A stretch of 64,000 nucleotides of DNA, taken from positions 22,001 to 86,000 of IMG/VR virus record IMGVR_UViG_3300026478_000749. One strand, written 5' to 3'. The notes beneath the pieces are model-generated. The model made no database searches. It was not told where the DNA came from and was given only the letters and a program-made list of their open reading frames with translations. Each line of letters opens with the position of its first letter. Position 1 is the first letter of the stretch. Made by a program: the position numbers and the translations under genes. Source of the DNA: a virus. Below are positions 1 through 61,590 of this stretch, in pieces.

Positions 1-797
1 ACATTTTTGCTACACCAGGTATTAACTGGAACGACCATAGCTCACTTGTAAATCAAGCGGTTGATATTATTGAGAATGATAGAGCGGACTCTCTTTATAT
101 CATCAATGCTCCTAATTTTAGCGGCACAACGGGTGCTAACGAAGTAATTGGTGCTTTAGATGATTTAGGATTCGATTCTAACTACTCAGCAACTTACTGG
201 CCTTGGATTCAAGTAAGAGATACAGATAACGCTACTCAGCTTTATATTCCACCAACAGGTGAGGTATTAAAGAATATTGCATTAACTGATAATGTATCTT
301 ACCCATGGTTCGCAGTAGCGGGTTACTCAAGAGGTCTTGTTAACTCAATCAAAGCAACTAAGAAGTTGACTCTTGATGAAAGAGACGAACTTTATAAAGC
401 AAGAATTAACCCAATTGCAACATTCTCTGATACAGGTACTATTATTTGGGGTAACAAAACGTTACAAGTTAGAGAATCAGCACTTGATAGAATCAACGTA
501 AGAAGATTGTTATTAAGAGCAAGAAAGTTAATCTCTGCAGTAGCTGTAAGATTATTGTTTGAACAAAATGATGATCAAGTTAGACAAGAGTTCTTAAGAT
601 TGGTTAACCCAATTCTTGAATCAATTAAGAAAGAAAGAGGTCTTTATGATTTCCGTGTAACAGTATCAAACGATCCAGAAGATATTGATGCTAACACATT
701 GAGAGGTAAGATTTACATCAAACCTACAAGAGCGTTAGAATTTATTGATGTTGAGTTTATTATTACACCAACAGGAGCTTCTTTTGAGAATATCTAA
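1..797 (+). CDS. gp18: Tail sheath protein, C-terminal part (5' truncated by window edge)
   Basis: The reading frame is open from base 3, so the gene starts before the window. Visible residues include a stretch like PPTGEVLKNIALTDN and FAVAGYSRG, followed by INVRRLLLRARKLI, FEQND and a closing PTRALEFIDVEFI strand. These are the usual landmarks of the C-terminal domain of contractile-tail sheath proteins (T4 gp18 family), where the last strands weave neighbouring subunits together. The sheath surrounds the tail tube and contracts during infection. The next gene is the tail tube protein, the same order as T4 genes 18-19. The gene ends in TAA and is followed at once by a strong terminator, as expected for a very highly expressed virion gene. 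The N-terminal half cannot be judged. Confidence 0.93.
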   Translation, partial: IFATPGINWNDHSSLVNQAVDIIENDRADSLYIINAPNFSGTTGANEVIGALDDLGFDSNYSATYWPWIQVRDTDNATQLYIPPTGEVLKNIALTDNVSYPWFAVAGYSRGLVNSIKATKKLTLDERDELYKARINPIATFSDTGTIIWGNKTLQVRESALDRINVRRLLLRARKLISAVAVRLLFEQNDDQVRQEFLRLVNPILESIKKERGLYDFRVTVSNDPEDIDANTLRGKIYIKPTRALEFIDVEFIITPTGASFENI

Positions 798-846: not shown

Positions 847-1091
847 ATTAGTATAAAGTAGTAATTAAAGAATATTAGTACATTGAAAATCAGTACATTA
901 GAAATAATAGAACATAGAAATATTAGAATAAAGTAAAATAGTACTATTAGAACATTAGTATTTTAGTAACGTAGTAGCAAAAAGCTAACGATTTTTTTCC
1001 AAAAAGTCAAGTATTTTGAAAAATAAATTTATTTCTAATATTGATATATTTATAAGGAAAGAAATAAACAAAACAATATAACACAAACACA
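847..1091 (+). promoter_or_regulatory. AT-rich untranslated leader of the tail tube gene
   Basis: This 245-base gap has no plausible gene: stops are frequent in all frames. Most of it is an irregular run of short words such as TTAGAA, AACATTAG and TAGTA from about 850 to 985. It then has an A/T-tract region and a TATTTATA motif 37 bases before the tail tube ATG. It may act as a promoter with upstream activating AT-rich DNA, or as an mRNA leader; this is inference. Confidence 0.4.
1047..1054 (+). promoter_or_regulatory. TATTTATA motif, candidate phage promoter element
   Basis: Exact TATTTATA 37 bases before the tail tube ATG; the longest spacing among the ten copies that precede a gene. Confidence 0.4.
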
Positions 1092-1580
1092 ATGGCAGAT
1101 TTATTAATGAAAATGCCGGTTCCATATGAACCGAAACGTAAAAATAGGTTTATCCTAAGATTTCCATCATCTTTGGGTATCAACGAGTGGTATGTAACAT
1201 CTACATCCCGTCCTAGTGCTAAAATTAATTCAACTGAAATTCCGTTTTTAAATACTTCAACATATGTAGCAGGTAGATTTACCTGGGACCCAATTAAGGT
1301 TACTTTTAAAGATCCAATTGGTCCATCTGCATCCCAAGCATTGATGGAATGGTTCCGTCTTCATGCTGAATCCGTAACTGGTAGAATGGGTTATGCTGCA
1401 GGTTATAAAAAGAACGTAGAACTTGAAATGTTAGATCCAACAGGGGTTGTTGTTGAGAAGTGGATTTTAGAAGGCTGTTTCTTAACAAGTTTAAACTTTG
1501 GTGATCTTAGCTATTCAGAAGATGCTTTAGCTTCAATTGACGCTGAACTAAGAATGGATAGATGTATCCAAGTTTACTAA
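1092..1580 (+). CDS. gp19: Tail tube protein (gp19-like)
   Basis: A 162-residue protein of the size of T4 gp19, which stacks in hexamers to form the inner tube through which DNA passes. The N-terminus runs into RKNRFILRFPSSLGI, and the middle holds FTWDPIKVTFKDPIGPSA and LMEWFRLHAES. The end is GDLSYSEDALASIDAELRMD. These match the pattern of gp19-type tube proteins: a strand-rich core, then an alternating 'W/F-P-I-x-V-T-F-x-D' strand and a closing 'a-x-I-x-x-x-L-R-x-D-x-c' strand. It sits directly behind the sheath gene and ahead of the tail chaperone and tape measure, as expected for a contractile tail module. It has its own leader and its own terminator, so it can be expressed at very high level. 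The ATG is preceded by an A/C-rich, SD-less leader. Confidence 0.92.
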   Translation: MADLLMKMPVPYEPKRKNRFILRFPSSLGINEWYVTSTSRPSAKINSTEIPFLNTSTYVAGRFTWDPIKVTFKDPIGPSASQALMEWFRLHAESVTGRMGYAAGYKKNVELEMLDPTGVVVEKWILEGCFLTSLNFGDLSYSEDALASIDAELRMDRCIQVY

Positions 1581-1594
1581 TATTCAAATAGTTT

Positions 1595-1602
1595 TATTTA
1601 TA
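1595..1602 (+). promoter_or_regulatory. TATTTATA motif at the foot of a terminator
   Basis: Exact motif between the tail tube stop and its terminator, about 143 bases before the next ATG. Because a terminator follows, it may be fortuitous. Confidence 0.15.
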
Positions 1603-1638
1603 ATCCCATATTCGTAAAAAACGGATGTGGGATTTTTA
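1602..1638 (+). terminator. Terminator after tail tube gene
   Basis: A long stem (AATCCCATATTCGT with ACGGATGTGGGATT, two G-T wobbles) closes on a loop of five A and is followed by TTTTTATTT. Confidence 0.85.
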
Positions 1639-1668
1639 TTTAATTGATAATCAATTAATTATATCAAG

Positions 1669-1684
1669 TGTTCCACGTGAAACG
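1669..1684 (+). promoter_or_regulatory. parS-like centromere site (predicted ParB binding)
   Basis: TGTTCCACGTGAAACG is 15/16 identical to TGTTCCACGTGAAACA, a form of the widely conserved bacterial chromosomal parS consensus TGTTNCACGTGAAACA. It lies in the 165-base gene-free gap between the tail tube terminator and the next gene, and I noticed no second copy in the window. ParB binding is inferred from sequence only. Confidence 0.55.
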
Positions 1685-1745
1685 CTGGTCTATTGATTTT
1701 TAATTATTTTATAGTTATATTAAAAGAAAAGAATTCAATACTATT

Positions 1746-2486
1746 ATGGAAAATATTAACCCAATGGTTGCGTATGATGTTGTTCAACTACCTTCTCAAG
1801 GTGTACATTATTCCAACGGAAAAAAATCATTAAGAGTTGCATACCTAACCGCATCAGACGAAAATATTTTAATGTCTCCAAACTTGATTCAATCTGAAAC
1901 GGTTGTGGATGAATTATTAAAAAGAAAAATTTTAGATAAAGATATTTCTTTTGACGAGATTGTAGAAGAAGACAGACAAGCAATATTAATATTTTTAAGA
2001 AATACTGCATTTGGAACTGAGTATACTGTAACAATTACTGACCCAGGAACAAAAAAACAATTTGAAGCAGTAGTGGATTTATCTGTTTTAAAGGTTAAGG
2101 ATTTTAAATTAACAGCGGATGCTAATGGTGAATATACATTTAGCCTTCCAGTATCAAAAAAGAATGTAACTTTTAAGTTTTTATCAAACACACAAGAAAA
2201 AGAATTACAATTAATTAAAGAAACAAGTGGTACAAATGTCGCACCTGTTAATACAAAGAGATTGGAGATGATGATAAAATCAGTAGATGGTCAAAGAGAC
2301 CAAATGGCTATTTATCAATTTATTCAAAATCTACCAATTAAAGATTCTTTAGAATTTAAAAAATTTGTATCAGAAAATAAACCAGGTTTAGACTTAATAG
2401 TAGATGTAATCGCCCCGTCAGGAGAAAAAGTCCCAGTTTTGGTTGACTTTGGGGTGGAATTTTTTCGTCCCTTCTACGGAATATAA
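1746..2486 (+). CDS. Tail assembly chaperone / gp26-like baseplate protein (T4_baseplate family), zero-frame product
   Basis: A 246-residue protein with the family hallmarks of T4 gp26/gp51-type proteins (Pfam T4_baseplate). These are an N-terminal LPSQGVHY strand, YLTASDENILMSPNLI, a KRKILDKDISFDEI segment, EDRQAILIFLRNTAFG (about residues 78-93) and a VVDLSVLKVK stretch. The gene lies immediately before the tape measure gene, the usual place of tail assembly chaperones (lambda G/GT position). In frame 0 the protein ends at FFRPFYGI. The +1 frame continues as a conserved-looking 45-residue tail with no start codon of its own, so I annotate a longer frameshift product separately. The zero-frame product is probably the major one; both would act in the cytoplasm during tail assembly. 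The exact role (hub assembly versus tape measure chaperone) is not certain. Confidence 0.8.
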   Translation: MENINPMVAYDVVQLPSQGVHYSNGKKSLRVAYLTASDENILMSPNLIQSETVVDELLKRKILDKDISFDEIVEEDRQAILIFLRNTAFGTEYTVTITDPGTKKQFEAVVDLSVLKVKDFKLTADANGEYTFSLPVSKKNVTFKFLSNTQEKELQLIKETSGTNVAPVNTKRLEMMIKSVDGQRDQMAIYQFIQNLPIKDSLEFKKFVSENKPGLDLIVDVIAPSGEKVPVLVDFGVEFFRPFYGI

Positions 2487-2610
2487 AAAAAGTCAAATAG
2501 AAACTATACTATTTCTTGTCTCAAGAGGATTTAGTTATCAAGATATCTTAATCCTGCCAATTCACGAAAGAACAAGCATGATTAATGCTATATTACAAAA
2601 AACTGAATAA
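1746..2610 (+). CDS. Predicted +1 frameshift product of the tail chaperone (G-GT type fusion)
   Basis: Reading shifts from frame 0 to the +1 frame at CCC-T (CCC at 2469-2471, skipping T2472). This joins FGVEFFRP to a tail beginning STEYKKSQIETILFL, containing VSRGFSYQDILILPIHER, and ending QKTE before TAA at 2608-2610. The fusion would be about 287 residues (242+45). The tail has the 'f-s-Y-x-D-i-L-x-x-P-x-x-E-R' pattern typical of small tail-chaperone C-termini. Its frame has no ATG until near its end, so independent translation cannot make it. CCC-U is a known +1 slip context (Listeria phage PSA). A -2 slip on the T6 run at 2460-2465 would reach the same frame. A one-base assembly error is the main alternative. 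Confidence 0.65.
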
Positions 2611-2613
2611 AAC

Positions 2614-2621
2614 TATTTATA
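2614..2621 (+). promoter_or_regulatory. TATTTATA motif, candidate promoter element
   Basis: Exact motif 19 bases before the tape measure ATG, in the 30-base gap after the frameshift tail stop. Confidence 0.4.
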
Positions 2622-2640
2622 ATATTATAGCACTAGTAAT

Positions 2641-4596
2641 ATGGCAGACATAAAAAAAGATTTTTACGACTTTTTAAGAAGTTTAGGTATCGATGATGAT
2701 GATGCAAAAAAAGCATCAGAAAAACACGCTAGTGCGATTGCTGATACAGCAGCCAAAGCCTCTAAATCAACGTCAACAACCTCAAGTGGTGGTAATAGTG
2801 TTGCAAGTGCACTAGGTGCTGCTTTTATAGATCAACAAGCTCAAACCTTAGCTAGAATTAATACAGAAACTGGTAAAAAAATACTCAATACTGTAAAGGG
2901 GATGGCGACATTTAATCCTTTAGAATTAATATCAACGGTTTTCGATGCTGGACTTGCAACAACCGAGGTTTTGTTAGGGGATATAGCTAAATTAAATGCT
3001 GAATTATTAGAAAAAACAAGGGGTGCTGGTGGGTATGTCGGCAGAATTGCAACCGAAATGATGGATACAACCAGATTCGCTATGATTGAAGCTCAGCGAT
3101 TTGGTGTTACAACAAACGAAACAATAAGCGCTGTTGAGTCTTTAATGGTTAATTCTGAGAGAATGGCAACATATAATGACAAGACCATATCAAATAGCAT
3201 GGTTGCGTCGTTAGCATTCACAAAGAATTCAAAAACAATATTAGAGAACGCTGAAAATTTTAGAAATGTTGGTATTGGCCTCGATGGTGCTGCAAAATCT
3301 ATTGAACAAATTGGTTCAAGATCAATAAAATTAGGTCTTAGTGCAAAAGCTACATCAGAAACCTTAATAAGCCAACTCGGTAAACTAAACGCATTTGGAT
3401 TCCAAAACGGAATAGCTGGTTTGGGTAAAATGGTTCAAGAAGCTCAAGCTTTAAAAATAAACATGGAAAGTATTTTTACCGTTGCAGATAAATTATATGA
3501 TCCAGAAAGTGCAATAAATTTAGCCGCTAATTTACAAGTTGTTGGTGGCGCCGTTGGCGATTTAGCAGACCCAATTAAACTAATGTATGATGCAACAAAT
3601 AATGTTGAATCGTTACAAACAAGTATTATTGGTGCAGCAAGAAGCTTAGCAACATACAATGCAGAACAAGGAAGATTTGAAGTAAGTGGAGCGAATTTAA
3701 GAAGAGCTAAAGCTATGGCAGATTCATTGGGTATATCAATGGGCGAGCTAACAAATATGGCAGTTAAAGGAGCCGCTAAATTTGAAGCAATGAGCGAATT
3801 GAATATGTTCCCATCATTAACAGATGACCAAAGAGAATTTGTTTCAAATATTGCAACAATAAAAGATGGAAAAGTTGGTTTCGATATACCTAAAAATATG
3901 GTTCAACAGATGGGTCTAACCAACGTTAAAGATGGATTTGTTAGTTTGAGTGATTTAACAGATAAACAACTAGCAGAATTACAGGATTTACAGAAAAAAG
4001 CTGCAGATGAAAAGCCAATAGATATTGCTAGAAACCAATTTAATGAAACAACAAAAATATTAAACGTAGCAACAGCAATTTACTTAAGATTAATGGAGGA
4101 TGTGAGAAGTGGACCGGCTGGGGATGCTGCAGCTAATTTAATGAAGAAGGCAGTCGATTTTACTGAAAATATTAACCCAACACAAAATAATACCGCTCAA
4201 ACAGTTAGACAAGTATATGGTGAGGCTACAGGAGCTGCTGGTGAAGCTTTAGATAAAATAATAGATAAGGTAAAAGGAGGAATGCCAAAAGAGGTACAAG
4301 AAACAATTAACTATCTAGAAACAAAACTAAGTGATATAACTAAAGATTTGAATATTCAGGAAAAAGCAACTGAGGTCCTAGAAAAAGCAAAAGAGTTAAT
4401 CGAAAGAGGTATAGAAAAAGGTAAAGATGCTTATGAGAATTTAAAGGGCTTTACAGGCGCCGTAGACATTAAAGTGGATATAAACAGTAATAGCACACAA
4501 TTAGCGGGTATTGTTGTGGATGAATTATCTAAAAATCCACAAATGAGAGCTGAATTTGTTTCTAATATCGTTAAGAGCACTAAAACATTTGCATAG
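2641..4596 (+). CDS. Tail tape measure protein
   Basis: A 651-residue, largely helical protein directly after the tail chaperone gene, where the tape measure is expected. The N-terminus has an Asp/Lys-rich helix and a Ser/Thr/Gly-rich linker (about residues 30-55). The core has long Ala/Leu/Gln helices with a segment around residues 285-345 (DPESAINLAANLQVVGGAVG, then DLADPIKLMYDATNNVE, IIGAARSLATYN) that I recognise from tape-measure-like proteins of large myoviruses. The C-terminal third (about residues 520-610) is a charged coiled coil. It would span the tail lumen, set tail length and leave the tail ahead of the DNA. At roughly 0.15 nm per residue it predicts a tail near 100 nm, similar to T4. 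No lytic domain is visible. It is slightly longer than T4 gp29. Confidence 0.75.
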   Translation: MADIKKDFYDFLRSLGIDDDDAKKASEKHASAIADTAAKASKSTSTTSSGGNSVASALGAAFIDQQAQTLARINTETGKKILNTVKGMATFNPLELISTVFDAGLATTEVLLGDIAKLNAELLEKTRGAGGYVGRIATEMMDTTRFAMIEAQRFGVTTNETISAVESLMVNSERMATYNDKTISNSMVASLAFTKNSKTILENAENFRNVGIGLDGAAKSIEQIGSRSIKLGLSAKATSETLISQLGKLNAFGFQNGIAGLGKMVQEAQALKINMESIFTVADKLYDPESAINLAANLQVVGGAVGDLADPIKLMYDATNNVESLQTSIIGAARSLATYNAEQGRFEVSGANLRRAKAMADSLGISMGELTNMAVKGAAKFEAMSELNMFPSLTDDQREFVSNIATIKDGKVGFDIPKNMVQQMGLTNVKDGFVSLSDLTDKQLAELQDLQKKAADEKPIDIARNQFNETTKILNVATAIYLRLMEDVRSGPAGDAAANLMKKAVDFTENINPTQNNTAQTVRQVYGEATGAAGEALDKIIDKVKGGMPKEVQETINYLETKLSDITKDLNIQEKATEVLEKAKELIERGIEKGKDAYENLKGFTGAVDIKVDINSNSTQLAGIVVDELSKNPQMRAEFVSNIVKSTKTFA

Positions 4597-18880: not shown

Positions 18881-19900
18881 ATGTCTAATACATTATTGGT
18901 TGATGGAGATAATCTATTAACCATTGGTTTCTACGGTTTAAAAAACCATTTTTATAAAGGTCAACATATAGGTGGATTGTTTCACTTTATTGACACGCTC
19001 AGAAGATCATTTGAGAATTATCAATTAGATAAGATCTGTGTATTCTGGGATGGTAAAGATGGTCATATATCTAGAAAGAAAATATATCATCACTACAAAG
19101 AGAACAGAAAGTCGAGAACAAGGACTGAAGAAGAAGTCTTCTCATACCAAAGGCAAAGATCTAGGATTAAACAATACTTGGAAGAACTTTATGTTAGACA
19201 AGGTGAATTCGAGTATTGTGAGTCCGATGATTGTATCGCCTACTACACACAAAATTCTCCTAAAGAGAAAAAGATAATCTATTCATCTGATAGGGACTTA
19301 GCACAGCTCGTAAATGAGAATGTTACACTCTATAACCCATCACACAGAAAGGTATACAAGAAGAATGACATAATTGATTATGATCATGAGAATATCTTGA
19401 TCGAAAATGTCAAACTAGTTAAAATCTTATGCGGTGATCCTTCTGATAATATCTTTGGGATTAAAAATATGGGCATCAAAAGATTAATCTCACTTTTCCC
19501 CGATATAAAGGAAAAGGAAATCACTCTAAGTGAGGCGAGAGAAAGGGGTAATCTTTTATTTTCCGAAGACAAAGAGAATAAATTGGTACAGAACTTTTTA
19601 ACTGGGGTCACTAAGCTCGGCGTTTTTGGTGACGAATTTTTTGATATAAACAATAAAATGGTTTGCTTGGATGAACCAATTTTAACTGAAGAAGCCAAAG
19701 AAGGTGTTAATTCTTTAATAAAAGAAAATCTTGATACTGAAGGTCGATCCTATAAAAACACTATGAAAATGATGATGGAAGATGGTATTTTCACTGTTTT
19801 GCCAAAGAGTGATGATGCGTGGATAAAATTTCTAAATCCTTTTCTAAGATTAACTACTAAAGAAAAAAATAAACATACAATTAAATTTAAAATTAAATAA
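18881..19900 (+). CDS. rnh: FEN-family 5'-3' exonuclease / RNase H (T4 Rnh-like)
   Basis: 339 residues. Acidic metal-binding motifs of the FEN/PIN fold occur in order: LLVDGDNLL (D8, D10), VFWDGKDGHISRKK, ESDDCIAYY, SSDRDLAQLV. They are followed by the helix-hairpin-helix-type LCGDPSDNIFGIKNMGIKRL. This matches T4 RNase H and T5 D15-like flap exonucleases, which remove RNA primers and 5' flaps on the lagging strand. Location between the recombinase and the helicase fits replication. The length is close to T4 Rnh (305). The C-terminal 60 residues are basic and may contact DNA or the gp32-like protein. Confidence 0.88.
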   Translation: MSNTLLVDGDNLLTIGFYGLKNHFYKGQHIGGLFHFIDTLRRSFENYQLDKICVFWDGKDGHISRKKIYHHYKENRKSRTRTEEEVFSYQRQRSRIKQYLEELYVRQGEFEYCESDDCIAYYTQNSPKEKKIIYSSDRDLAQLVNENVTLYNPSHRKVYKKNDIIDYDHENILIENVKLVKILCGDPSDNIFGIKNMGIKRLISLFPDIKEKEITLSEARERGNLLFSEDKENKLVQNFLTGVTKLGVFGDEFFDINNKMVCLDEPILTEEAKEGVNSLIKENLDTEGRSYKNTMKMMMEDGIFTVLPKSDDAWIKFLNPFLRLTTKEKNKHTIKFKIK

Positions 19901-52002: not shown

Positions 52003-54204
52003 ATGAGCTTTTTAGATAGTAGTAATTCAGAATTCTTATCAGCAAGAATAACCAGAAAGGGTAGAAAATCTATCGCTGAAGGTAATTTTGTTATAAAATA
52101 TTTTCAGGTCGGTGATTCTGAGTTTGATTATACTTTCAGTGGATTTACTGGAGCAGGCACAACACCAAGACAAAGAGTATTGGCGCCTATGGATGGAGAT
52201 CAGCATGTAAAGTATCCCTATCTATTAACAGGTACAGATACAATTAACTATGGTAACGCTGTTGAACAATCAATAACAACCACATTAAAAAATGCAATGG
52301 GTCCAGCTGGATTTGTTACAAACTATAGACCATATAACGCTAGTCCTTGTACTGGCACAACAGTTGAATGCGTATCAAAAGAAATTTCAACGACAACAAT
52401 TAGTACTACAGTCATTGATGGGGTACCAGTACCAGTTACAGGTACAACTGAATTATCTTTAGGCGTTACAGGTAAAACTGCACAAGATTTTAGAGAATGT
52501 GAGTATATTACATTGGTATTTGATAATGAATTTAAACAGTCTAACAATGTAATAAGCGGTGGAACTCAAAGCTTAGTCTATAAAATTACAGATATTATCA
52601 TTAATACCGGAACGACATTGATAAATGGCGTCCAAACAATTACCGGAGATACTAAATTAGTTTTAGATAGAAGAACGCCAAATTTAGCCGGAGCATCGCC
52701 ATCAAGTGTTACTAGAGTTGTTTGCAACAGGTGTAGCTTAGAGTATCCAGAATCTCCAGCAGGGTCAAGTGTCTGTTCACCATTACCAGTTGACAATCTA
52801 GCGCAACACGATCCATGGACACTAGAAACAATATGGACACAAAAGCCAGCTGGTTTAGACGCGTCTGATGAGGCATTAAGTGGTTATACTGGAACTCAAT
52901 TTGCATCTCTAAAAGAGTATTTGGGATATACATCTACAGGCCAAACATTTACAAATTTAACTGGCGGAACAATTTCAAATCCAACATCATATACAAATTC
53001 ATTCGGTGAAAAAATTGATGTTAAACCAGAAGATCAAAGATGTATTGCTGTTATTCACTATTCAGAATTAGGAGACATTGTTAATGATCCAGAAAGATTT
53101 TTTAAATATGATGATTACATTGGAAGCGAAACGGATGAAGAATATTATACATACGATCCAGATGATTTAGTTTCTGACGTTAATCATTTTGAAGTTTATA
53201 TTCCTTTTATTTTTTATCATAGAAATACAGGAACAACAATCGGCGCAAAATTTGTGATGGATACAACTGATTATTATGTTTCATCAGCAAAAAATACTAA
53301 ACCAAACACAAACAATCTTAAGTTTAGATTTTTATTAGACGAACAAGGTATTCGTGTTGGTAAAGTATTTGTCGATAAAAAAATTATTGTATTTGATGAC
53401 CAAGAATTGGTGGCTGTATTAGAATATAAAACAAATAGAAAATATACATTACCAGCCCCTAGATTTAACACAGTACCATTAGATTTACCAACATTCTATG
53501 ATTTAGATCCAGTAGTTCTTACAGGAGAAACTGCTTGGGTTACATACATGTTCCAATACACTGGCGACACCTATAAAAACGGTATGCACTGTAACTATTA
53601 TGGTAAAATTACAGGTACAACAAATTCAAATATAGGATTTAGATTTGAAACAGGAGATTTTAAATACTTAAGCAATTCATCATATTTTACTGGATTCACA
53701 GCAAATAAATTTTATGCTTTGGTTCAGGTTGTACAAACAGGAAATCAACCGTCCTCAGACGCTTGGAAAATAATTGATTTAACATCTCAAATATCTGGCC
53801 ATACTGTTGGTAACTTAATATCCAAAACAAACATGTGCGGATATCAATTTGTGATAACAGGAGATATGTACGATTCAGCATCAACATATGATATTGAAAC
53901 TTATCTTGGACCATTACCAAATATTGATCAACCAACATTACCACAATTTGGGGATTCACAACCCTTTCCAGGTGCTGTTCAATTAACAAGAGCAACTGAC
54001 GTAGAGGTTTTAAATTTCATGGTTAATTTACCCGGAACACAATTCTTAACAAGCCAGAACCCAACATATGTTACTGGACAACCAAAAAGAATAACAGAGG
54101 TAGCATTATTAAATGAAAATAAAGAACCTTTAGTTACAGCTAAATTAGCTAAACCGTTAGAAAGAACAGGTAATCAGGTATTTTCAGTTAGAATTGATTT
54201 CTAA
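52003..54204 (+). CDS. Large virion structural protein closing the adhesin island
   Basis: 733 residues. It starts FLDSSNSEFLSARITRKGRK, SIAEGNFVIKYFQVGDSEFD, an N-terminal pattern I associate with baseplate-attached structural proteins of large T4-like phages. A four-Cys patch (VVCNRCSLEYPESPAGSSVC) may bind zinc. The centre has EDQRCIAVIHYSELGDIVND and VNHFEVYIPFIFYHRNTG. The C-terminus ends LTRATDVEVLNFMVNLPGTQ, RITEVALLNENKEPLVTAKL and FSVRIDF, as if packing into a wedge or collar. It has no Thr-Pro linker, unlike the genes before it, so it may be a shared holder for the fibres. No named family is certain. Confidence 0.5.
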   Translation: MSFLDSSNSEFLSARITRKGRKSIAEGNFVIKYFQVGDSEFDYTFSGFTGAGTTPRQRVLAPMDGDQHVKYPYLLTGTDTINYGNAVEQSITTTLKNAMGPAGFVTNYRPYNASPCTGTTVECVSKEISTTTISTTVIDGVPVPVTGTTELSLGVTGKTAQDFRECEYITLVFDNEFKQSNNVISGGTQSLVYKITDIIINTGTTLINGVQTITGDTKLVLDRRTPNLAGASPSSVTRVVCNRCSLEYPESPAGSSVCSPLPVDNLAQHDPWTLETIWTQKPAGLDASDEALSGYTGTQFASLKEYLGYTSTGQTFTNLTGGTISNPTSYTNSFGEKIDVKPEDQRCIAVIHYSELGDIVNDPERFFKYDDYIGSETDEEYYTYDPDDLVSDVNHFEVYIPFIFYHRNTGTTIGAKFVMDTTDYYVSSAKNTKPNTNNLKFRFLLDEQGIRVGKVFVDKKIIVFDDQELVAVLEYKTNRKYTLPAPRFNTVPLDLPTFYDLDPVVLTGETAWVTYMFQYTGDTYKNGMHCNYYGKITGTTNSNIGFRFETGDFKYLSNSSYFTGFTANKFYALVQVVQTGNQPSSDAWKIIDLTSQISGHTVGNLISKTNMCGYQFVITGDMYDSASTYDIETYLGPLPNIDQPTLPQFGDSQPFPGAVQLTRATDVEVLNFMVNLPGTQFLTSQNPTYVTGQPKRITEVALLNENKEPLVTAKLAKPLERTGNQVFSVRIDF

Positions 54205-60924: not shown

Positions 60925-61590
60925 ATGATTACAAAAGATTTTAGTCTTTATGCGAAAGACAGAGGTATTGGTTCATTAGATTTACATCGTTTTAACAAAA
61001 ACATTGAAAATAGTTTGACACCATATATTCTTGAGGAGAGATCCCTTAATGTTACTGTGATGGATGTATTCAGTAGACTTATGATGGAAAGAATCATTTG
61101 GGTTGCGGGTGAAGTGAATGATCATATGTCAACAATTGTTCAAGCACAGTTAATGTTTTTGGATAGCTTAGACAATAACGATATTACAATGCACATCGAC
61201 AGTCCAGGTGGATCTGTTAAATCTGGTTTATCAATGGTTGATGTTATGGAATATATTAATTCAGATATCAGAACAATTAACACTGGAATGGCTGCATCTA
61301 TGGGATCAATCCTTTTAGGTGCTGGTACAAAAGGTAAAAGAGGGTCACTTAGATTTTCACGTACAATGCTGCACCAGTCCAGCGGAGGATTTCACGGAAA
61401 TATCCAAGATGCTAAAATCGATATGCTTGAGTGGGAAAAACTTAATAACTTACTTTTTGATTTGTTAGGAGGATATTGTGGTAAAGACGCAAAACAAGTA
61501 ATGCAAGACGCATCAAGAGATTTATGGTTATCTGCTGAAGACGCATTGGCTTATGGTATTATTGACGAAATAGTCAAAAAGAAAAAATAA
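60925..61590 (+). CDS. clpP: ClpP-like serine protease (S14 family)
   Basis: 221 residues with an intact catalytic triad: S125 (GMAASMGS), H150 (RTMLHQSSGG) and D199 (SRDLWLSAEDALAYGIID). The family landmarks VFSRLMMERIIWVAGEVNDH and IDSPGGSVKSGL are also present. Host ClpP works with a Clp ATPase, of which none is seen here. A phage copy could use host ClpX/ClpA, replace host ClpP, or serve as the capsid (prohead) protease, as S14-type proteases do in some phages. The gene is monocistronic, between a promoter-like motif and a strong terminator, and lies far from any recognised head gene. Confidence 0.92.
   Translation: MITKDFSLYAKDRGIGSLDLHRFNKNIENSLTPYILEERSLNVTVMDVFSRLMMERIIWVAGEVNDHMSTIVQAQLMFLDSLDNNDITMHIDSPGGSVKSGLSMVDVMEYINSDIRTINTGMAASMGSILLGAGTKGKRGSLRFSRTMLHQSSGGFHGNIQDAKIDMLEWEKLNNLLFDLLGGYCGKDAKQVMQDASRDLWLSAEDALAYGIIDEIVKKKK

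What the first reader, a model, noticed from the sequence alone, without database searches (positions are those of the whole stretch)
1669..1684. Near-perfect bacterial parS site in a phage intergenic gap
TGTTCCACGTGAAACG differs at one of 16 positions from TGTTCCACGTGAAACA, a form of the parS consensus TGTTNCACGTGAAACA bound by chromosomal ParB. A 16-mer with one mismatch is not expected by chance in 64 kb, and this copy lies in a short gene-free gap. No parA/parB gene is visible here. The phage might recruit host ParB for genome tethering, copy segregation, shielding or transcription control. Use of a host parS by a lytic-type phage would be unusual.
Basis: partly seen in the sequence, partly recalled or inferred. 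Interest (0 to 1): 0.78.

Follow-up and report, generated by a model that had tools for sequence, protein, structure and literature searches.

The report
Host-type parS site in phage tail genes
A large phage whose hosts are probably Bacteroidota bacteria carries, between two tail genes, an evolutionarily conserved copy of the DNA tag that bacteria use to segregate their own chromosomes, although no matching tag-binding protein was found in it, which suggests that it borrows the host's protein.

Summary
The site is real: window 1669-1684 is one base off TGTTNCACGTGAAACA; its 14-bp core GTTCCACGTGAAAC is exact and unique in the 86-kb record. It lies between tail-tube and baseplate-hub genes, after a terminator.

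It is conserved. Of 81 sequences (window plus 80 relatives), 51 have a parS-like palindrome (0-2 mismatches) in this gap and 4 one gene upstream; 1 was unreadable, 1 has four copies elsewhere, and 24 in two distant clades have none in the gaps readable. In 18 representatives the 14-mer is 89% identical, its flanks 37-53%.

The window's core is the commonest parS core in 13 Flavobacterium arrays (51 of 87 sites). No ParB_N gene was found in 28 phage records.

Best reading: a loading site for host ParB (about 65%). Binding and benefit are untested. Against: phage sites vary more at the centre than host sites (15 of 27 versus 3 of 87), and in 18 of 22 distinct gaps the palindrome sits 6-15 bp before a promoter.

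More widely, parS 16-mers in IMG/VR lie between genes more often than control palindromes (76 of 147 versus 14 of 142).

The parts
1669..1684 (.). parS-like 16-mer TGTTCCACGTGAAACG; palindromic core 1670-1683 GTTCCACGTGAAAC
   Evidence: conserved in relatives; equals the commonest core in 13 Flavobacterium parS arrays
3..797 (+). C-terminal part of tail sheath gene (runs off the window start)
   Evidence: phrog_23 tail sheath E 2e-36 for 366-797; open frame of 264 aa
1092..1580 (+). tail tube gene
   Evidence: phrog_4542 E 5e-28
1602..1634 (+). intrinsic terminator-like hairpin after the tube gene; the parS site follows it
   Evidence: 14 pairs, then TTTATTT
1693..1721 (+). promoter-like TTGATT-17-TATATT 9 bp downstream of the core; a TTGATT-type -35 follows the site in 18 of 22 distinct gaps
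   Evidence: consensus match only
1746..2486 (+). baseplate-hub-like gene downstream of the site
   Evidence: phrog_150 E 2e-10; anchor for the 80 relatives

Best explanation
The 14-bp palindrome is a chromosomal-type parS site kept by selection in this clade of large tailed phages of (probably) Bacteroidota, and it is read by the host's ParB rather than by a phage protein. SHOWN: sequence, conservation above its flanks, presence in either of two neighbouring gaps, identity with host parS cores, no ParB_N gene in the records read. INFERRED: host ParB nucleates on it, closes as a CTP clamp and slides over the nearby tail genes, coupling the phage genome to host ParA/SMC so that it is positioned or shared between daughter cells during slow or carrier-state infection; locally the clamps would also affect transcription of late genes. 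I put host-ParB binding at about 0.65. Given binding, I rate positioning/segregation (about 0.45) above late-gene control (0.3) and titration of host ParB by many phage copies or shielding (0.25).
For: Relatives: site with <=2 mismatches in the tube-hub gap in 51 of 81 and in the sheath-tube gap in 4 of 81. 18 representatives: site 0.89 mean identity, flanks 0.37-0.53. Host spectrum: 20 of 20 Flavobacterium genomes that I chose have GTTYCAYRTGRAAC sites, reversed control in 1 of 20; in 13 arrays fetched, of 87 sites (<=2 mismatches) 51 are GTTCCACGTGAAAC in either orientation (window form), 22 GTTCCACGTGGAAC, 4 GTTTCACGTGAAAC; the one array read in detail surrounds an ORF I recognise as mnmG/gidA. 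Bacteroidota: 78 of 148 genomes match GTTYCAYGTGGAAC. No ParB_N in 28 of 28 phage records, the same search ringing in 10 of 14 control genomes. A Flavobacterium ParB aligns over residues 39-232 with solved ParBs and has GKKR in the recognition helix, which I equate with G170-K171-x-R173, whose arginine contacts guanine 1 of parS in PMC7383237 (passages). Host: SD-like motifs before 1 of 53, 8 of 188 and 2 of 134 long ORFs, below background. Distance to the -35 is not fixed (6, 8, 9, 15 bp; no TTGATT in the L049 group). Relative G026 has four parS cores, each 70-90 bp from DnaA-box-like TTATCCACA.
Against: Phage sites are degenerate at the centre (ACGT changed in 15 of 27 forms, i.e. 22 distinct gaps plus 5 sites in the sheath-tube interval, versus 3 of 87 host sites, Fisher 5e-9), which could mean weaker ParB binding or another reader; ACGT is not depleted in these genomes (0.92-0.98 of expected), so restriction avoidance does not explain it. 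Two variants carry a one-base insertion in one arm (L023, L040; read). In 18 of 22 distinct gaps with the site it sits 6-15 bp before a TTGATT -35. One intergenic site per long record is little for partition. The 24 loci of two more distant clades lack it in the gaps readable, and the isolated Flavobacterium phage immuto lacks it genome-wide. The ParB_N search also missed the divergent ParB-like gene of G026, so a divergent phage reader is not excluded. Host assignment is indirect. No binding data exist.
Confidence: 0.62

Rival explanations
1. The palindrome is an operator for a phage-encoded (non-ParB) regulator of the hub/tail-gene promoter; its likeness to parS is convergent.
For: In 18 of 22 distinct gaps with the site it lies 6-15 bp upstream of a TTGATT -35; its centre varies unlike host parS; one copy next to one late promoter.
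Against: Same palindrome without that promoter in L049, L050, L051 and L054, where by eye it lies in the loop of a terminator-like hairpin, and in the sheath-tube interval in L038, L039, L047, L048 and L257; only one intergenic copy in each of G000, G003 and G010, so no regulon; full match to the host parS core.
Confidence: 0.22
2. It is an RNA hairpin (GUUCC-loop-GGAAC) acting in the transcript, e.g. as part of the tube terminator or the hub 5' leader.
For: Arms are conserved better than the centre; in 10 of 22 distinct gaps it begins 0-4 bases after a run of T.
Against: The window/L005 form GTTCC ACGT GAAAC breaks one stem pair yet equals the host parS core; by eye no consistent T-run follows it; in the window it lies after the terminator and before the next promoter.
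Confidence: 0.08
3. The site binds host ParB but has no use to the phage, or is a relic of an older plasmid-like life.
For: Not seen in two clades; some copies degenerate.
Against: Retained at 0.89 identity amid flanks of 0.37-0.53; the sheath-tube position needs three changes on the tree, at least two forced.
Confidence: 0.08

Closest known systems
Chromosomal parS of the ParABS/Spo0J system (Flavobacterium form)
   Same: Same 14-bp core, including the asymmetric C/T form that dominates in the 13 Flavobacterium arrays read
   Different: One intergenic copy on a phage, in a late tail-gene gap, not in a chromosomal array; no ParB_N gene found on the same record; centre more variable
SGI1 parS-like elements that hijack the IncC plasmid parABS (PMC10954446; abstract and section list seen)
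   Same: A parasitic element with sequences mimicking another replicon's parS
   Different: SGI1 uses a plasmid's ParB and binding was shown; here the presumed donor is the host chromosome and nothing is shown by experiment
Phage-borne partition systems (P1 parABS, recalled; ParB-encoding phage Lacachita, PMC10286716, passages seen)
   Same: Phage DNA using the ParB/parS principle
   Different: Those phages encode ParB; among 28 records here only relative G026 has a (divergent) ParB-like gene
Noc-binding sites (NBS)
   Same: Related ParB-family reader and palindrome
   Different: NBS is TATTTCCCGGGAAATA (PMC7383237, passages); bases 1 and 6 here are parS-type G and A

Membership tests
chromosomal-type parS site | palindromic core GTTNCACGTGNAAC | tested here: met
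   exact in the window; relatives with the site have 0-2 mismatches
chromosomal-type parS site | matches the parS used by the presumed hosts | tested here: met
   commonest core in 13 Flavobacterium arrays, 51 of 87 sites; the host itself is inferred
chromosomal-type parS site | conserved more than neighbouring DNA | tested here: met
   0.89 versus 0.37-0.53
chromosomal-type parS site | bound by ParB | not testable with these tools
   needs EMSA or ChIP-seq
phage or plasmid ParABS partition cassette | parB on the same replicon | tested here: not met
   0 of 28 records with ParB_N; no significant tblastn match in G000, G003, G010; records may be incomplete and a divergent ParB can be missed, as in G026
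SGI1-type partition hijack | parS-like sequence on a parasitic element | tested here: met
SGI1-type partition hijack | the other replicon's ParB binds it and stabilises the element | not testable with these tools
   no binding or stability assay possible
Noc-binding site | A at base 1 and C at base 6 | tested here: not met
   site has G1 and A6; criterion from PMC7383237
promoter operator with fixed spacing | constant distance to one promoter | tested here: not met
   6, 8, 9, 15 bp, no such promoter, or another gap

The most novel reading that the evidence does not exclude
Carrying orphan chromosome-type parS sites is a general strategy of phages: several unrelated phage lineages keep them between (often structural) genes and dock host ParB, and with it ParA/SMC, on their DNA for positioning, carrier-state inheritance or late-gene timing. 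At high copy number such sites could also strip ParB from the host origin. In relative G026 the mimicry extends to parS plus DnaA-box units.
Probability: 0.35. Interest if true: 0.82.

Novelty: new variant of a known kind. Interest (0 to 1): 0.62.

Why it matters
If host ParB loads on these genomes, phages would be exploiting the bacterial chromosome-segregation machine through a 14-bp tag, a cheap route to positioning or inheritance without an own partition system. It is directly testable with one site mutant and one ChIP-seq. I saw no report of an orphan chromosomal-type parS on a phage in nine searches of the held open-access library (two were aimed at host parS and ParB specificity). Searches returned no paper; in the others except I saw only the top of a longer list, and beyond listings I saw passages of five papers and one abstract. 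Subscription journals and preprints are not held.

Tried and rejected
Raw count as evidence of enrichment in IMG/VR: rejected. Only the split between gaps and ORFs (76 of 147 versus 14 of 142 sites; background non-ORF fraction 0.17 versus 0.09, 0.19 and 0.12) and multi-copy stretches (17 of 120 versus 0 of 142) separate parS from controls. Both long lists are capped, and some such contigs may be host or plasmid DNA.

Second near-sites in G003 (41403), G010 (41501) and G000 (54685, window 32685) lie inside open frames in different contexts; treated as chance.

parS near the parB gene in Flavobacterium: no exact parS core in the 80 loci fetched around parB, with up to 10 kb on each side; the arrays are elsewhere.

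DnaA boxes near parS as a general rule: not seen (7 of 147 versus 5 of 120 control sites); it holds only for G026 and the contig L502 that repeats it.

Nearest named phages: no DNA match to window 1000-2700 in the phage collection; the tail tube is 40% and 34% identical to Microcystis phage Mel-JY01 and Flavobacterium phage immuto, both without the core. A second window protein (52003-54204) found no relative there.

Full report
Observation. The 16-mer TGTTCCACGTGAAACG is at 1669-1684. It has one mismatch to TGTTNCACGTGAAACA; at up to three mismatches the window has 4 hits against 3.14 expected, so only this near-exact one is informative. The core GTTNCACGTGNAAC occurs once in the whole 86-kb record. 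A composition-matched simulation gives about 7.5e-5 such sites (<=1 mismatch) per 150-bp gap.

Surroundings. The phage has a contractile tail: tail sheath (phrog_23), tail tube (phrog_4542, phrog_45) and baseplate hub (phrog_150) genes follow each other, with recombinase- and exonuclease-like genes further on. The site lies after a terminator-like hairpin at 1602-1634 and 9 bp before a sigma70-like TTGATT-17-TATATT. GC is 0.33. Long ORFs lack Shine-Dalgarno motifs (1 of 53 in this record, 8 of 188 in G003, 2 of 134 in G010, each below the same motif at -60 to -46), a trait of Bacteroidota as I recall. Named phages with related tail tubes include Flavobacterium and Rhodothermus phages, but the best is a Microcystis phage, so the host is inferred.

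Conservation. The best 80 of 104 IMG/VR loci with a related hub gene were kept. With the window, 51 of 81 have a parS-like site (0-2 mismatches to one of three parS forms) in the tube-hub gap; 4 of 81 (L038, L039, L047, L048) have it in the sheath-tube gap instead; 1 (L042) is unreadable; L076 has neither but its record G026 has four exact cores elsewhere; 20 loci of a clade at 54-57% hub identity and 4 at 42% show none in the gaps that could be read. L257, found independently by the parS pattern, has a perfect TGTTCCACGTGGAACA in the sheath-tube interval, which there also holds a homing endonuclease gene. Many loci are near-copies: 34 distinct tube-hub gaps, 22 with the site. On 18 representatives the 14 bp are 0.89 identical pairwise, the four 14-bp flanks 0.44, 0.45, 0.37 and 0.53. 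On a tree of 30 tube+hub proteins the sheath-tube position needs three changes, at least two of them forced by well-supported branches; deep forks are poorly resolved.

Who could read it. In 20 of 20 Flavobacterium genomes (chosen from the 80 loci) GTTYCAYRTGRAAC is found 2-10 times; in the 13 genomes whose places were listed the sites are clustered, with few outliers. In those 13 clusters, 77 of 87 sites (<=2 mismatches) are exact: 51 GTTCCACGTGAAAC in either orientation (the window's form), 22 GTTCCACGTGGAAC, 4 GTTTCACGTGAAAC. The one cluster read in detail surrounds an ORF that I recognise as mnmG/gidA. 78 of 148 Bacteroidota genomes have GTTYCAYGTGGAAC; the reversed control matched in 11 of 148 by my count of the table. 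No ParB_N gene is in 28 of 28 phage records (the window's and those of 27 of the 80 relatives), including 251 and 199 kb contigs, while the same search rings in 10 of 14 control genomes; tblastn found no significant match in G000, G003 or G010. That search has limits: it missed the divergent ParB-like gene of G026, and none of G000, G003, G010 shows a terminal repeat, so they may be incomplete. The review PMC7022226 (passages) lists TGTTCCACGTGGAAC-type parS for Pseudomonas and Myxococcus and ParB binding to half-sites GTTCCAC/GTTTCAC; 27 of 27 phage forms keep at least one such half, although any single change leaves one half intact.

Against. Phage sites differ from host sites in their centre: ACGT is changed in 15 of 27 phage forms and 3 of 87 host sites. 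ACGT is not avoided genome-wide. L023 and L040 carry a one-base insertion in one arm (read). In 18 of the 22 distinct gaps with the site it is 6-15 bp upstream of a TTGATT -35, which fits an operator. In L049, L050, L051 and L054, however, it lies by eye in the loop of a terminator-like hairpin and the following promoter looks different, and five loci have it in the sheath-tube interval. I therefore keep a phage operator as the main rival.

Wider picture. Its raw number is not a fair measure because one of three control palindromes also reached the limit. But 76 of 147 parS 16-mers lie outside ORFs of 100 aa or more, against 14 of 142 control sites (Fisher 4e-15), and 17 of 120 parS stretches hold more than one copy against 0 of 142. 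ParB_N was found in 2 of 50 (of 59) records with a gap site. Some are phage by gene content: L247 (portal), L260 (head-tail adaptor), L263 (a relative, about 30% identical, of the exonuclease-like window gene 18881-19900; two copies). I did not check the others in this way, apart from the neighbours given.

G026. A second contig, L502, repeats this stretch exactly and adds a fifth unit. It suggests that this lineage mimics two host origin signals, but the pairing is not general among parS-bearing contigs.

Mechanism. Most likely host ParB nucleates at the site and spreads as CTP clamps (described for ParB in PMC12704722, passages). What follows, positioning or inheritance through ParA/SMC, silencing or timing of tail genes (plasmid ParBs silence flanking genes and, for SopB, hinder gyrase and restriction enzymes: PMC7333895, passages), or titration of ParB at high phage copy number, cannot be decided from sequence.

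Novelty. Parasitic parS mimics are known for SGI1 against a plasmid ParABS (PMC10954446, abstract). An orphan chromosomal-type parS conserved in a phage clade was not seen in nine searches of the held library, most of them cut to the top of the list. I class it as a new variant of a known kind.

Noticed in passing
L106 1-4300 (record G026, relative of the window phage); also L502: Four to five repeated units of DnaA-box-like TTATCCACA (often paired) followed 70-90 bp later by a dyad GTTTTGGCAGTA..TACTGCCAAAAC with an exact parS core at its centre, next to a divergent ParB-like gene (phrog_12305).
   Followed up: partly
IMG/VR loci L195-L314: Exact parS 16-mers lie in intergenic gaps and in multiple copies far more often than control palindromes; some neighbours are phage structural genes (L247, L260), and ParB_N was found in only 2 of 50 records searched.
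   Followed up: partly
L263 1505-1520 and 1802-1817: A distant relative has two perfect TGTTCCACGTGGAACA sites in a shared ~30-bp repeat, one directly upstream of an exonuclease-like gene.
   Followed up: partly
L257 5245-6771: Homing (HNH) endonuclease gene in the sheath-tube interval of a relative, ending beside the parS site.
   Followed up: no
window 60925-61590: Phage-borne ClpP-like protease gene (Pfam CLP_protease E 2e-55).
   Followed up: no
G000, G003, G010 whole records: CATG is under-represented (0.50-0.54 of expected) in all three phage records, yet several parS-like sites in this clade have a CATGTG or CACATG centre.
   Followed up: no
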